Part shown: piece after piece, positions 10,740 to 15,048 of the stretch
Layout: the number at the start of each line of letters is the position of its first letter
Numbering within the stretch: the first letter of the stretch is position 1
From: Arthrobacter sp. PAMC 25486
GTDB taxonomy: Bacteria; Actinomycetota; Actinomycetes; Actinomycetales; Micrococcaceae
Length of the DNA stretch: 64,000 nucleotides
Assembly: GCF_000785535.1 (NCBI RefSeq)
Contig: NZ_CP007595.1
Span: forward strand, 992,001 to 1,056,000
Direction of reading: 5' to 3'
Notes under the pieces: generated by a model
What the model was told of the DNA's origin: nothing
Seen by the model: only the letters and a program-made list of their open reading frames with translations
The model's database searches: none
Program-made: the position numbers and the translations under genes

Positions 10740-11465
10740 TTACAGCACTATGGCCTCGATCAATTCGGGGCCATTGTTGCGCACATTGCCAACAGCGGAG
10801 CTGACCGGATCCAGTTCCCACGCGGCGGCCCGCCCCCAGGCCTCGTCCAAGGCCGCCGCCAGCAACGCCCCCGCATCCTTGGCGGCGGGGTCAAGCCATT
10901 CGGCCAGCCCCTCCCGATCCAGGGGCACAGGAAGCCGGTCATGCAAGGTGGCCAGTTCGCCGTCGGGTGGTGAACCCATGGTCAAGATGGTGCAGGACAG
11001 CAGCCACTGCCCCGGATCCCCATCCGCTTTGGACGGGTCCTTCCACCATTCATACAGCCCAGCAAAGGTGATGAGTGCGCCGTCGGGAGTGTGGACAAAG
11101 TAGGGCTGCTTGGTCTTGCCGTCGGGGGACTTTTTCCATTCGTAATAGCCCTGGACGGGCACGCCGCAGCGCCTTGCCTTGAAGGCTGCCCGAAAGGTTG
11201 GCTTCTCGGCAACTGTTTCGCTGCGGGCGTTGAAGGCGCGCACACCCACTGCGGCATCCTTCGCCCAGCCGGGCACCAGACCCCAGGCGGCGACATGGAT
11301 TTGCCGGTGCACGGCGCCGTCGATGAGCCGTTCCAGCACAATGGGCACGTCGCTGGTGGGAGCAACATTCCACGACGCCCGCAGCTCAAGGGAGGCCTCA
11401 GCCTCGGCCTCCAGCTCGGCCACCAAATCCCCCACAGCCCTTGCCATCACATAGCGTCCACACAT
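10740..11465 (-). CDS. SRAP-domain protein (YedK/HMCES family)
   Basis: A 241-residue SRAP protein that crosslinks to abasic sites in single-stranded DNA. I start at ATG 11465 so that the protein begins MCGRYVM: removal of Met exposes the catalytic Cys2, which forms the thiazolidine bond. Other family signatures are WNVAPTSDVPIV, FNARSET, PVQGYYEWKK (active-site Glu) and LHDRLPVPL with the conserved His. Length is normal. Confidence 0.93.
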   Translation of the reverse strand: MCGRYVMARAVGDLVAELEAEAEASLELRASWNVAPTSDVPIVLERLIDGAVHRQIHVAAWGLVPGWAKDAAVGVRAFNARSETVAEKPTFRAAFKARRCGVPVQGYYEWKKSPDGKTKQPYFVHTPDGALITFAGLYEWWKDPSKADGDPGQWLLSCTILTMGSPPDGELATLHDRLPVPLDREGLAEWLDPAAKDAGALLAAALDEAWGRAAAWELDPVSSAVGNVRNNGPELIEAIVL

Positions 11466-11510
11466 GCCATCCATGGTGGCACAAAATAAGGACTATGCAC
11501 CCCAGCTTTT

Positions 11511-12605
11511 TCAATACGAGGTGCCCATGGCGCCCCGCACCTCTTTGAGGGTCGCCTCAGCAATGGTATTTGCGCGTTCATTGCCCCTCTGCAAAACGCT
11601 GCGGAGATATCCTCGATCCTTGGCATAGTCAGCCCGACGCGCACGGATGGGCGCCAGGTGTTCGTTGACCGCCTCTGTGACCACCTTCTTAAGCGCACCT
11701 GAACCGCCCTGGCCAATCTCCTCAGCCACCTCATGCGGGTCACGGTTTTGGCACAAGGCAGCAAGCAGGAGCAAGCTGGAAACCTCGGGGCGGGCAGCCG
11801 GATCGTAGGAAATGTAGCGAATCGAATCGGTCTTGGCGCCACGGACCAGCCGTGCTGTCTCATCCACTCCGTCCGCCAAGGCGATGGCGTTGCCTCGGCT
11901 CTTGCTCATTTTTCCCCCGTCGGTGCCCAACAGCAGCGGGGCGGCGGACAACAGTGCCTCAGGCTCAGGAAACACGTCACCGGCCCTGCCATATCTGGTA
12001 TTAAAGCGCCGCGCGATCGTCCGAGTCAGCTCCACATGAGGCAGCTGGTCCTGTCCCGCAGGAACCAGGTTTGATTTGCAGAAGAGGATGTCAGCCGCCT
12101 GATGAACCGGATAGGTGAACATCAGGCCGCTGACAGCAGCTTGCCGGGAGTGGACGATCTCATCCTTGACTGTGGGATTCCTGCCCAGCTCGGCGACCGA
12201 GACCAGGCTGAGAAACGGGAGCAACAGCTGGTTCAACGCAGGTATTGCACTGTGGGCAAAGATGGTGGAACGGGCAGGATCCAGGCCGACGGCCAGATAG
12301 TCCAAAACCAGGTTCTCGACATTTTCAGACAGGTGATGGGCCACATCGCGATCGGTCAGGACCTGATAGTCAGCGATGAGCACGAAGGTCTCAACACCCA
12401 GCTCTTGCAGCCGCACCCGATTTTGCAGGGTGCCAAAATAGTGTCCGAGGTGCAGCCGTCCAGTTGGGCGGTCACCTGTCAACACCCGAAACTTGCCGGG
12501 GTCTTCCAGAACGCGTTGTTCCAGAGTCCCTGTTCCGTAGTGGGTCCCATCCGTGTTCCGCATAGTGTCCGGGGTTGTTCGCTGGGGTTCGTGTTGCTTC
12601 ATCAT
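11511..12605 (-). CDS. trpS: tryptophan--tRNA ligase, attenuator-controlled
   Basis: A class I synthetase of 364 residues. HIGH-type motif TGRLHLGH and KMSKS motif GGKMSKSRGN are intact. It charges tRNA-Trp. Start ATG 12605 follows AGGAG at 6-nt spacing; the in-frame start at 12701 would be inside the leader. The leader holds a complete Trp attenuator (see separate entries). In Streptomyces, an auxiliary indolmycin-resistant TrpRS is known to be regulated by ribosome-mediated attenuation, so I infer a similar auxiliary enzyme. Whether a second, housekeeping trpS exists lies outside the window. Confidence 0.93.
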   Translation of the reverse strand: MMKQHEPQRTTPDTMRNTDGTHYGTGTLEQRVLEDPGKFRVLTGDRPTGRLHLGHYFGTLQNRVRLQELGVETFVLIADYQVLTDRDVAHHLSENVENLVLDYLAVGLDPARSTIFAHSAIPALNQLLLPFLSLVSVAELGRNPTVKDEIVHSRQAAVSGLMFTYPVHQAADILFCKSNLVPAGQDQLPHVELTRTIARRFNTRYGRAGDVFPEPEALLSAAPLLLGTDGGKMSKSRGNAIALADGVDETARLVRGAKTDSIRYISYDPAARPEVSSLLLLAALCQNRDPHEVAEEIGQGGSGALKKVVTEAVNEHLAPIRARRADYAKDRGYLRSVLQRGNERANTIAEATLKEVRGAMGTSY

Positions 12606-12663
12606 GCTGGGCTCCTGGTCAGTTGTTAGGCACCGTTGCGACGGCGTCCCCACTGCAGGGCAC

Positions 12664-12689
12664 AAAAAAGGCCGTCCTTGCGAACGGCC
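12664..12689 (-). terminator. attenuator terminator (3:4 hairpin) before trpS
   Basis: On the minus strand GGCCGT and ACGGCC pair around an 8-nt loop and are followed directly by TTTTTT, a canonical intrinsic terminator. It lies about 60 nt upstream of trpS and downstream of a Trp-Trp leader peptide. Its 5' arm can instead pair with 12709-12716 (GAACGGCC with GGCCGTTC), which would prevent termination. Confidence 0.88.
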
Positions 12690-12708
12690 GCGATCCTTCA
12701 CATGGCAT

Positions 12709-12728
12709 GGCCGTTCCTACAAGGAACG
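12709..12728 (-). promoter_or_regulatory. attenuator 1:2 hairpin and antiterminator strand
   Basis: Region 1 (12723-12728, CGTTCC) pairs with GGAACG in region 2 (12709-12717, GGAACGGCC). Region 2 can instead pair over 8 bp with region 3 (GGCCGTTC, within 12682-12689). Region 1 immediately follows the two Trp codons of the leader peptide, so a ribosome stalled there would cover it and free region 2. Confidence 0.85.
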
Positions 12729-12758
12729 CCACCACGCCAAACTCTGTGAATATTGCAT
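12717..12758 (-). CDS. Trp-rich leader peptide of the trpS attenuator
   Basis: A 13-codon open frame, MQYSQSLAWWRSL, with tandem TGG codons 9 and 10. It sits between a promoter-like -10 and the terminator hairpin. No Shine-Dalgarno sequence precedes it, and the -10 hexamer lies only 8 nt upstream of ATG, so the message is probably leaderless, a common actinobacterial mode. Low charged tRNA-Trp would stall the ribosome at the Trp codons and let trpS be transcribed. Confidence 0.82.
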   Translation of the reverse strand: MQYSQSLAWWRSL

Positions 12759-12766
12759 GAGACGAG

Positions 12767-12772
12767 ACTATA
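12767..12772 (-). promoter_or_regulatory. -10 element of the trpS leader promoter
   Basis: TATAGT on the minus strand, one base from TATAAT. The expected start of transcription falls at or within 1-2 nt of the leader peptide ATG (12758). The matching -35 region is weak. Confidence 0.55.
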
Positions 12773-12934
12773 CCAGGACCACCCGTCCTTTCTTTGCGCT
12801 TATTGAGCCAATGATGAGCAGTCAAGACCCATCAGGACGCCGCTGGGGCACCTCCGAAAAATGAGGAATATGCACCTCAGCCGGTAGCGTTGTGCCTGGT
12901 AGCAACAACAATTCATCTTCCTAGGAGCTTTGAC

Positions 12935-13192
12935 GTGGATTTCACCCCCGAGACCGGATCAATCACCATGTTTTCCACCACCTGGTGCGGCTACTGCAAG
13001 CGCCTGAAGAAGCAGCTTGACACTGCAGGGATTGGCTACACGGAGATCAACATCGAGGACGTTCCCGGCACCGCCGAACTCGTTGAAAGCCTCAACGGCG
13101 GCAACCAGACGGTCCCCACCGTACTGTTCCCGGATGGCACCGCAGCCACCAACCCCTCACTGAACGATGTGAAGGCCAAGCTGGGCGTCTAG
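12935..13192 (+). CDS. mrx1: mycoredoxin / glutaredoxin-like protein
   Basis: An 85-residue thioredoxin-fold protein with a CGYC redox motif in FSTTWCGYCKRLKKQL and the cis-proline in TVPTVLF. Mycoredoxin-1 reduces mixed disulfides between proteins and mycothiol. Start GTG 12935 has AGGAG 7 nt upstream and gives the usual family length; an in-frame start at 12890 would add 15 atypical residues. It lies upstream of a mycothiol-dependent dehydrogenase, which supports a mycothiol role. Confidence 0.88.
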   Translation: MDFTPETGSITMFSTTWCGYCKRLKKQLDTAGIGYTEINIEDVPGTAELVESLNGGNQTVPTVLFPDGTAATNPSLNDVKAKLGV

Positions 13193-13232
13193 CCTGCGGG
13201 CACTCCGCCGGCAAACGCCGCGGCGTTGCCTC

Positions 13233-13335
13233 ACCATAAAGAGCTCCTTCGGCACCAATGGCTGTAGCCTGTCAGGACCCCCATTGAATGTTCCTTGCAC
13301 AAGGAACATGGCTGATTCAAGGAGCTCTTTATGGT
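13233..13335 (+). promoter_or_regulatory. 17-bp inverted repeat spanning the RBS and ATG of the mycothiol dehydrogenase
   Basis: ACCATAAAGAGCTCCTT (13233-13249) is the exact complement of AAGGAGCTCTTTATGGT (13319-13335), which contains the Shine-Dalgarno sequence and the start codon. The 69-nt loop holds a second perfect dyad with 10-bp arms at 13288-13309. In an mRNA starting upstream, this would fold into a hairpin that hides the start site. Confidence 0.75.
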
Positions 13336-14431
13336 TAACAAGACCGTTCACAAGGTCAAGGGCGCGGTGGTGCTGGCCAAGGACGCACCGGTCACGTTGG
13401 AAACTGTCCTGGTGCCGGACCCCGGACCCGGCGAGGTGCTGGTTGACATCCTGACCAGCGGCGTCTGCCACACCGACCTGCACTACAAACAGGGAGGCAT
13501 CAGCGACGACTTCCCGTTCCTGCTGGGACACGAGGCCACCGGCGTGGTCAACACGGTGGGCGCCGGCGTCACCAACGTGGTGCCGGGCGACCGGGTGATC
13601 CTGAACTGGCGTGCCGTGTGCGGCAACTGCCGCGCCTGTGCCAAGGGCCAGGCCCAGTACTGCTTCAACACAGCCAATGCCACGCAGAAGATGACCCTGG
13701 AGGACGGTACGGTCCTCTCCCCCGCACTGGGCATCGGGGCTTTCATTGAGAAGACCCTGGTTGCCGCTGGGCAATGCACCAAGGTCGACGCCGATGTGGA
13801 CCCTGCCGCTGTTGGCCTCCTTGGCTGTGGCATCATGGCGGGCCTCGGTGCCGCCATCAACACCGGCGGCGTCAAGCGCGGGGACACCGTGGCCGTGATT
13901 GGCTGCGGCGGTGTTGGTGCGGCAGCCATTGCCGGCGCCGCCCTCGCCGGAGCCACCACCGTCATCGCCGTGGACCGGGATCCCAAGAAGCTGGCCGCAG
14001 CCGTGGCACTCGGGGCAACCCACACGGTCAACGCCTCCCAGGAGGACGCTGTCGTTGCCATCCAAAACCACACCGGTGGTTTCGGGGCAGATGTGGTGAT
14101 TGACGCCGTCGGACGTCCCGAAACCTACAAGCAGGCCTTCTATGCCCGTGATCTGGCCGGCACTGTGGTCCTGGTGGGCGTGCCCACCCCTGAGATGACT
14201 CTCGAACTCCCGCTGCTGGACGTGTTTGGCCGCGGAGGCTCGCTGAAGTCGTCCTGGTACGGCGACTGCCTGCCTTCGCGCGACTTCCCCATGCTCGTGG
14301 AGCTGTACAAGCAGGGCAAACTGGACCTTGACGCCTTTGTCAGCGAACGCATCACCATCAACGACATTGAGGCCGCATTCACCAAAATGGGCGAGGGCTC
14401 AGTGCTGCGATCGGTGGTGGAGTTCGCATGA
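13331..14431 (+). CDS. mscR: S-(hydroxymethyl)mycothiol dehydrogenase (formaldehyde dehydrogenase / nitrosothiol reductase)
   Basis: A 366-residue zinc-dependent medium-chain dehydrogenase. The catalytic zinc cysteine is in GVCHTDLHY (about 46), structural zinc cysteines are in [15 protein letters not shown] (about 97-111), and the NAD-binding loop is [10 protein letters not shown]. It closely resembles the mycothiol-dependent enzymes (AdhE/MscR) that oxidise S-hydroxymethyl-mycothiol to the formyl form and reduce S-nitrosomycothiol. The next gene overlaps its stop by 4 nt. A long inverted repeat covers its RBS and start. Confidence 0.93.
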
Positions 14432-15048
14432 GCGCACGCATTGAACGCCTGATCACCTCAGGGACTTTCTCGCTCGATGGCGGCACCTGGGACGTGGACA
14501 ACAACGTGTGGATCGTGGGTGACGACGCCGAGGTGTACGTGATCGACCCCGCCCACAATCCGGCCGCCATCAGGGAGACCGTGGGGGAACGCTCCGTCAA
14601 GGCGGTGCTGCTGACGCACGGCCACGACGACCACATTCGCTTCGCCCGCGACTTTGCCGCCTTGGTGGGCGCACCCGTGCTGATGAACCCGGCCGACCAG
14701 ATGCTGTGGGAGGACATTTTCCCTGGCACCACCCCGGATGCCCCCATCGCTGAGGGCGACGTCTTTGAGGTGGCAGGCACACGTTTGACGGCACTGCACA
14801 CCCCAGGGCACTCCCCCGGGTCAACGTGTTTCTACGCAGCATCCCTGGGCACGGTGTTCACCGGCGACACGCTGTTCAACGGCGGCCCGGGAGCCACCGG
14901 GCGCTCGTACAGCGACTTCCCGACCATTGTGAAGTCGATTTCCGAGCGGCTCATGACCCTGCCGCCGGAGACCGTTGTCAATACCGGCCACGGCGACTCC
15001 ACCACCATTGCCGCCGAGGCACCGGGGATTGCGGCGGCTGGGCTGTAA
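14428..15048 (+). CDS. MBL-fold metallo-hydrolase
   Basis: A 206-residue metallo-beta-lactamase-fold hydrolase with the HGHDDH zinc motif (about residue 66), further ligands in [10 protein letters not shown] and FTGDTLF, and NTGHGDST near the end. Its ATGA overlap with the mycothiol dehydrogenase mirrors the mycobacterial arrangement (MscR followed by Rv2260-type hydrolase). I infer that it hydrolyses the S-formyl-mycothiol product; glyoxalase II-like activity is the alternative. Confidence 0.9.

What the first reader, a model, noticed from the sequence alone, without database searches (positions are those of the whole stretch)
12664..12772. Complete ribosome-mediated Trp attenuator in front of trpS
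Seen directly: -10 TATAGT (12767-12772), leader peptide MQYSQSLAWWRSL (12758-12717) with TGG TGG, then three exclusive pairings. They are CGTTCC:GGAACG (1:2), GAACGGCC:GGCCGTTC (2:3) and GGCCGT:ACGGCC plus TTTTTT (3:4). Region 1 starts at the base after the second Trp codon, the geometry of classical attenuators. Known: Streptomyces trpRS1, an auxiliary indolmycin-resistant TrpRS, is regulated by such attenuation. Inferred: this TrpRS is an auxiliary, inducible, possibly resistant enzyme in an Arthrobacter-like host.
Basis: partly seen in the sequence, partly recalled or inferred. Interest (0 to 1): 0.8.

Follow-up and report, generated by a model that had tools for sequence, protein, structure and literature searches.

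The report
Trp-starvation switch before spare TrpRS gene
A short RNA switch that appears to sense a shortage of charged tryptophan tRNA sits in front of a spare, probably acquired tryptophan-tRNA ligase gene; the kind of switch is known, but an extra stem, a different enzyme lineage and signs of travel as a small gene cassette are added here.

Summary
A 13-codon leader (MQYSQSLAWWRSL), tandem Trp codons, pairings 1:2, 2:3, 3:4 and a U-run lie upstream of trpS. Shuffles reproduce the pairings plus U-run in 1 of 5000. The design accompanies the gene in 70 of 80 genome contigs relatives and in 14 of 14 carriers in a family sample, window included. Corrections: the conserved -10 is TAGTCT, putting +1 at about the leader ATG (leaderless). 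An outer stem pairs early leader codons with the 2-3 linker and covaries (0 of 2000 permutations); similar pairing occurs in S. lividans trpL2-type leaders and five further Trp leaders. The enzyme is auxiliary. It is not orthologous to the trpL2-type TrpRS (35% identity); its lineage occurs in S. griseus, whose auxiliary TrpRS is reported indolmycin-resistant (PMC6804068). It lies in a roughly 1.35-kb insert between 24-bp imperfect repeats; 18 of 20 same-genus loci lack it. Stalling, induction and resistance remain inferred. Verdict: a real new member of a known regulatory kind.

The parts
12765..12770 (-). -10 element TAGTCT (conserved TANNNT register); puts +1 at about the A of the leader ATG
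   Evidence: TANNNT ends 6 or 7 nt before the leader start in 87 of 87 leaders (86 by the last match, L090 by its other match); 0.8% at random points. The start-picking script favoured starts with such a box
12717..12758 (-). leader ORF MQYSQSLAWWRSL with stop TAG; no room for a Shine-Dalgarno site if +1 is at the ATG
   Evidence: relatives
12729..12734 (-). tandem Trp codons TGG TGG (leader codons 9 and 10)
   Evidence: tandem in 67 of 70 genome contigs leaders, one Trp codon in L057, L071, L074
12745..12750 (-). outer stem 5' arm UUCACA (leader codons 3-5)
   Evidence: Fold; arm-swap test
12697..12702 (-). outer stem 3' arm UGUGAA, in the linker between regions 2 and 3
12731..12739 (-). middle helix 5' arm UGGCGUGGU, includes Trp codon bases; pairs with 12711-12703
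12703..12711 (-). middle helix 3' arm GCCAUGCCA (overlaps the end of region 2)
12723..12728 (-). region 1 CGTTCC
12709..12717 (-). region 2 GGAACGGCC
12682..12689 (-). region 3 GGCCGTTC
12664..12677 (-). region 4 GGACGGCC and U-run TTTTTT (intrinsic terminator with region 3)
12612..12616 (-). Shine-Dalgarno-like AGGAG of trpS
   Evidence: read from the sequence
11511..12605 (-). auxiliary trpS, 364 aa, TIGR00233 (ATG at 12605 chosen by its Shine-Dalgarno-like site)
   Evidence: 248.5 bits, cut-off 176.75; PF00579
11483..11506 (.). left copy of a 24-bp imperfect direct repeat (21 of 24 identical) flanking the trpS insert
   Evidence: sites without trpS in relatives
12858..12881 (.). right copy of the 24-bp imperfect direct repeat

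Best explanation
This is a ribosome-mediated transcription attenuator that switches on an auxiliary TrpRS when charged tRNA-Trp runs low. Transcription starts at or next to the leader AUG, so a ribosome loads directly on the 5' end (inferred from -10 spacing). Without leader translation, codons 3-10 and regions 1 and 2 are locked in a long hairpin and the 3:4 terminator forms: off. With ample Trp-tRNA the ribosome runs to the stop codon and covers region 2: off. With uncharged tRNA-Trp the ribosome stalls at codons 9-10, displaces the outer stem and region 1, region 2 pairs with 3, and trpS is transcribed: on. Shown: the parts, their recurrence and covariation, and the auxiliary status. Inferred: stalling, termination, induction, the role of the outer stem, and that TrpRS inhibitors such as indolmycin are a natural trigger.
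For: Elements and fold. Trp leader in 70 of 80 genome contigs relatives and, window included, in 14 of 14 carriers of the family sample. -10 spacing in 87 of 87 leaders. Strict three-pairing test met in 75 of 87 leaders, against 131 of 8700 shuffles. Cells changed on both sides: 14 (1:2), 9 (2:3), 11 (3:4), each above all 500 shuffles. Arm-swap permutations 0 of 2000 for the outer arms and for 1:2, 2:3 and 3:4. In 60 leaders of one length, codons 2-8 evolve nearly freely (dN/dS 0.78) while TGG is kept in 58 and 60 of 60. Same logic reported for S. lividans trpL2 (PMC8079986, passages) and predicted for S. avermitilis trpS2 (PMC1262725, passages and one section).
Against: No expression data. 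The leader finder required a Trp codon near the end, so Trp counts are partly circular; the loci it missed were read and show no recognisable leader without Trp. 10 of 80 relatives lack an intact leader; L052 and L070 have only about 290-300 bases upstream, and L019's leader is interrupted. 12 of 87 fail the strict test: five Paeniglutamicibacter leaders have one mismatch (A-C or C-C) inside 2:3; several WWW-type leaders start region 1 inside the last Trp codon. Of 81 terminators scored, 21 have 3 or fewer T in the next 8 bases. On alignment A1, 1:2 slid by +1 or -2 columns has a higher covariation score (0.189, 0.162) than the true register (0.156), and for 2:3 the covariation score and the pair-type counts do not exceed shuffles. 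Outer-arm pairing is weak or absent in some leaders (L089 +0.2, L092 -4.8 kcal/mol).
Confidence: 0.9

Rival explanations
1. The leader is an attenuator, but the enzyme's job is general back-up charging under Trp starvation, or a side activity such as that reported for TrpRS II with nitric oxide synthase, not antibiotic resistance.
For: The closest solved sequences are a TrpRS and a TrpRS II (1yi8, 2a4m; organism Deinococcus radiodurans recalled). PMC9437257 (passages) describes TrpRS II with nitric oxide synthase. The sensor responds to charging, not to a drug as such. No antibiotic cluster was looked for beside the gene.
Against: S. griseus BIG105 (6.9 Mb assembly) has this lineage as its only second trpS, and PMC6804068 reports the S. 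griseus TrpRS SGR_3809 as indolmycin-resistant. The position of B. stearothermophilus His43, whose change to Asn gives resistance (PMC4899734, passages), is Gln in 56 of 56 members examined. In Streptomyces it tends to replace the trpL2-type auxiliary TrpRS.
Confidence: 0.35
2. Control is by leader translation but mainly through Rho or translational coupling; the 3:4 hairpin is not the main control point.
For: 21 of 81 terminators have 3 or fewer T in the next 8 bases; PMC8079986 notes no U-rich sequence after trpL2 in S. lividans.
Against: The window has TTTTTT right after the 3:4 stem, and 3:4 is the best-kept helix, 99.2% of cells paired.
Confidence: 0.08
3. Chance arrangement of a short ORF and hairpins, or an ordinary terminator.
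For: All three pairings without a U-run arise in 142 of 5000 shuffles of the window sequence.
Against: Recurrence, covariation and start-site spacing over many genera.
Confidence: 0.01

Closest known systems
Trp attenuator trpL2 of S. lividans trpS (PMC8079986, passages read; taken to be the trpRS1 lineage of S. coelicolor by inference; Vecchione and Sello 2010 recalled, not read)
   Same: Leaderless short leader ending in one or two Trp codons, competing hairpins, trpS downstream; outer-arm pairing also present
   Different: Downstream enzyme is another lineage: in L122, recognised by its leader, 35% identical to the window protein and 48% to the host's primary TrpRS; MTTRTCTQLWWAA-type leader; U-run poor or absent
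S. avermitilis trpS2 candidate attenuator (Seliverstov 2005, PMC1262725; passages and the Tryptophan section read)
   Same: Prediction of the same kind of element before a second trpS
   Different: One genome; the figure legend says the attenuator alignment runs from the Trp codons to the terminator, so outer-arm pairing could not appear; TrpRS lineage not stated in what was read
E. coli trp operon attenuator (Rfam Trp_leader RF00513; architecture recalled)
   Same: Same stalling logic and exclusive 1:2, 2:3, 3:4 pairings
   Different: No Rfam match to the window at E up to 1; leaderless leader; longer leader hairpin; controls a TrpRS
S. griseus TrpRS SGR_3809 (PMC6804068, passages read)
   Same: S. 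griseus BIG105 has two trpS, one 77% identical to the window protein
   Different: SGR_3809 itself was not fetched; that it is of this lineage is inferred

Membership tests
Classical ribosome-mediated Trp attenuator | Leader ORF with Trp codons near its end | tested here: met
   70 of 80 relatives, (finder required a Trp codon)
Classical ribosome-mediated Trp attenuator | Mutually exclusive 1:2, 2:3, 3:4 helices with covariation | tested here: met
   not every covariation measure exceeds its control
Classical ribosome-mediated Trp attenuator | Intrinsic terminator with U-run before the structural gene | tested here: met
Classical ribosome-mediated Trp attenuator | Read-through rises when tRNA-Trp charging falls | not testable with these tools
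   needs experiment
Rfam Trp_leader RF00513 or T-box | Match to an Rfam covariance model | tested here: not met
   no match at E up to 1 in 11000-14500
Orthologue of the S. lividans trpL2-type TrpRS (taken as TrpRS1) | Closer to that enzyme than to other TrpRS lineages | tested here: not met
   34.5% identity; that enzyme is 48% identical to the host's primary TrpRS
S. griseus SGR_3809-type TrpRS | Same lineage as SGR_3809 | tested here: inconclusive
   S. griseus BIG105 has this lineage plus one classic trpS; SGR_3809 not compared
S. griseus SGR_3809-type TrpRS | Resistance to indolmycin | not testable with these tools
   needs assay; His43 position is Gln
Auxiliary TrpRS | Present in addition to a primary TrpRS | tested here: met
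   14 of 14 carriers among 197 family genomes have two or more trpS

The most novel reading that the evidence does not exclude
Actinobacterial Trp attenuators share an undescribed outer stem in which the leader coding sequence itself is folded onto the linker between regions 2 and 3. On a leaderless leader this makes loading of the first ribosome the key that unlocks the switch, giving a tight off state. The switch controls two distinct auxiliary TrpRS lineages that tend to replace each other across Streptomyces, and in the window's lineage it travels with the gene as a small self-regulated cassette.
Probability: 0.5. Interest if true: 0.6.

Novelty: new member of a known kind. Interest (0 to 1): 0.42.

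Why it matters
It adds a second auxiliary TrpRS lineage to a starvation-responsive switch known from Streptomyces, shows the regulated gene in sporadic genomes and on plasmids with its own control attached, and supplies a covarying extra stem and a leaderless start that make the coupling of first-ribosome loading to attenuation testable. No Rfam family matched it.

Tried and rejected
Rejected: TATAGT as the -10 (relatives align TAGTCT). Rejected: orthology with the trpL2-type TrpRS. Considered: selection on the leader peptide itself (Cys6 is kept in 57 of 60 leaders with both codons used); codons 2-8 overall have dN/dS 0.78, and Cys6 lies in the outer arm, so pairing may explain it (inference). 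Led nowhere: a covariance-model search of the own genome gave no second element (next hit E 0.057, overlapping a long open frame); no convincing Trp leader upstream of the own primary trpS or trpE. Phylum search with the model, strict filters: 8 of 396 genomes hit. Own and G302 are trpS leaders; five are Trp leaders before other genes, of which one is TrpE over its cut-off (L108), three are anthranilate-synthase-like but below cut-offs (L105-L107) and one was not identified (L104); G497 is a tRNA/terminator false match. RNAalifold on the 5' part of A1 found almost nothing, probably because MAFFT did not align the outer arms; the arm-swap test replaced it.

Full report
Observation. In 5000 dinucleotide shuffles of the sequence after the last Trp codon, 142 gave all three pairings in the right places; in another 5000, 1 gave them with a U-run. 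The trpS gene (11511-12605) is TIGR00233 at 248.5 bits against a cut-off of 176.75. Rfam 15 has no match at E up to 1 in 11000-14500.

Recurrence. The search for related loci returned 80 loci, the best of 349 confirmed, mostly Streptomyces but also Nonomuraea, Microbispora, Micromonospora, Actinomadura, Microlunatus, Labedaea, Paeniglutamicibacter and others. A Trp leader precedes the gene in 70 of 80: 67 with tandem Trp codons and 3 with one. Nine gave no leader (two of them, L052 and L070, have only about 290-300 bases upstream) and L019 has its leader interrupted. The finder required a Trp codon near the end of the ORF and favoured starts with an upstream TANNNT. In a sample of 197 family genomes, 14 carry this enzyme at E <= 1e-100, own included; the 13 others have a Trp leader, two of them with a single Trp codon (L090, L095).

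Leaderless start. By the last match before the start codon, TANNNT ends 6 nt (73) or 7 nt (13) upstream in 86 of 87 leaders; the 87th, L090, also has a box at 6 nt. Random points have one 5-9 nt away in 0.8%. This puts +1 at about the A of the start codon, with no room for a Shine-Dalgarno site. In the window the element in that register is TAGTCT, 12770-12765. PMC8079986 (passages read) reports leaderless trpL1 and trpL2 in S. lividans.

Pairings. On alignment A1 (56 leaders) 2:3 pairs in 90.9% of cells, 3:4 in 99.2% and 1:2 in 85.7%, with divergent leaders misaligned. Cells changed on both sides exceed all 500 shuffles for each helix. Against: for 2:3 the covariation score (271 of 500 shuffles as high), pairs changed on both sides and pair types do not exceed shuffles; for 1:2 and 3:4 further pair types do not (386 and 175 of 500), nor for 1:2 pairs changed on both sides (113 of 500); 1:2 slid by +1 or -2 columns has a higher covariation score. 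A per-sequence test (1:2 of at least 5 bp within 3 nt of the last Trp codon, 3:4 of at least 6 bp, 2:3 of at least 6 bp) is met by 75 of 87 leaders and by 131 of 8700 shuffles.

A missed element. The window's fold extends hairpin 1:2 outward, ending in leader codons 3-5 (UUCACA) paired with UGUGAA between regions 2 and 3. To test this, the arm from codon 3 to the Trp codons and the linker arm were taken from 81 leaders; 80 had a terminator found and 77 were non-redundant. Own arms pair at -11.7 kcal/mol on average, arms swapped between leaders at -8.2, and 0 of 2000 permutations were as good; own is better than the row mean in 70 of 77. The gap is larger than for 1:2, 2:3 or 3:4 in the same test, though arm lengths differ. 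The arms tested include part of the middle helix. In 12 Micrococcaceae leaders alone 1 of 2000 permutations reached the observed value, and pairing is weak or absent in some of them (L089, L092). Similar pairing is found in 27 leaders of the S. lividans trpL2-type trpS (own -14.7, swapped -13.8, 5 of 2000) and in 5 Trp leaders before other genes (own -13.7, swapped -7.7, 19 of 2000); of those genes one is TrpE over its cut-off, three are anthranilate-synthase-like below cut-offs and one was not identified. The Tryptophan section of PMC1262725 (read) aligns attenuators from the Trp codons onward, so it could not show this stem. Vecchione and Sello 2010 could not be read. I saw no description of the stem in the listings of searches or in the passages read, which is weak evidence of novelty.

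The enzyme. The genome holds a second intact trpS (38% identical) and a decayed third copy with five stops. In the family sample the 14 carriers have two or more trpS each; among the other 183 genomes one (G129) has two, one (G029, 82% complete) has none, and the rest have one. In a tree of 57 proteins the window's place is unresolved: its nearest rows by path are Paeniglutamicibacter-type proteins (L084, L006) and then Streptomyces rimosus (L056), no starred group holds it, and the outgroup is very distant. The closest solved sequences are 1yi8 and TrpRS II, 2a4m. A gene under a S. lividans trpL2-type leader (L122, recognised by its leader) encodes a protein 35% identical to the window's and 48% identical to the host's primary TrpRS, so it is another lineage. 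In 101 Streptomyces genomes, 20 have the window's lineage, 64 have the other, 4 have both and 21 neither; Fisher p 1.3e-5, not corrected for relatedness. Of the 64, 30 loci were fetched: 27 show a leaderless Trp leader and 3 could not be assessed by the script.

Resistance. S. griseus BIG105 (6.9 Mb held, completeness not told) has two trpS, one of the window's lineage at 77% identity and one classic at 36%. PMC6804068 (passages read) states that S. griseus NBRC 13350 has two TrpRS genes and that SGR_3809 encodes an indolmycin-resistant enzyme. That SGR_3809 is of this lineage is my inference. The residue at B. stearothermophilus His43, whose change to Asn gives resistance according to PMC4899734 (passages read), is Gln in 56 of 56 members examined; the residue at position 9 (numbering recalled) is Arg in 56 of 56, against Gln in the own primary enzyme and Lys in L122, which keeps His43.

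Mobility. SRAP was found in 23 of 23 same-genus genomes and 20 loci were fetched. In 18 of the 20 the SRAP and glutaredoxin genes are neighbours with no trpS between; the window and G892 have trpS there. In the window the insert is bounded by a 24-bp direct repeat, 21 of 24 identical (11483-11506 and 12858-12881); in the five relatives whose gap was printed, one more or less similar stretch is seen. G892's trpS, which also has a Trp leader, is 75% identical to the window's while SRAP, the acetyltransferase and the alcohol dehydrogenase are 91-95%; but its glutaredoxin is only 77%, so faster divergence and separate acquisition cannot be told apart. On plasmids 12 records match, several of them megabase-sized; of 8 fetched, 7 have a Trp leader (5 distinct), two of them only weakly scored by the model (E 0.006), and the Collinsella record shows none.

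Mechanism. Shown: parts, positions, recurrence, covariation and auxiliary status. Inferred: ribosome loading at the 5' end, stalling at codons 9-10, displacement of the outer stem and region 1, antitermination by 2:3, and default termination otherwise. No expression data exist here.

Verdict. A real, recurrent Trp attenuator: a new member of a known kind, with three additions (outer stem, different TrpRS lineage, probable small mobile cassette).

Noticed in passing
L003 (G000:C1:2846099-2846941): A decayed third TrpRS-like sequence with five stops in the own genome, matched by the auxiliary enzyme (36%) and not by the primary one, beside sequence that reads like transposon remnants.
   Followed up: partly
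L019:885-1908: In Streptomyces sp. NBC_01016 the trpS attenuator is interrupted between regions 1 and 2 by about 0.9 kb that looks like an insertion sequence; leader half and terminator half lie on either side.
   Followed up: partly
L112, L116: Microbacterium sp. No. 7 carries the same attenuated trpS next to IS21 istAB genes on two different plasmids, suggesting it moved with the insertion sequence.
   Followed up: partly
L168 (G892:C6): The sister genome's auxiliary TrpRS has an open frame but HLGYYFG where the window has HLGHYFG and no ATG at the expected start, perhaps relaxed selection.
   Followed up: partly
L105-L107: Leaderless Trp leaders with outer-arm pairing precede anthranilate-synthase-like genes that fall below every listed cut-off; possibly a chorismate-using enzyme other than TrpE.
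   Followed up: partly
table: About a dozen Streptomyces trpS of the second lineage are flagged with one in-frame stop; perhaps alignment past the end of the gene, not checked.
   Followed up: no
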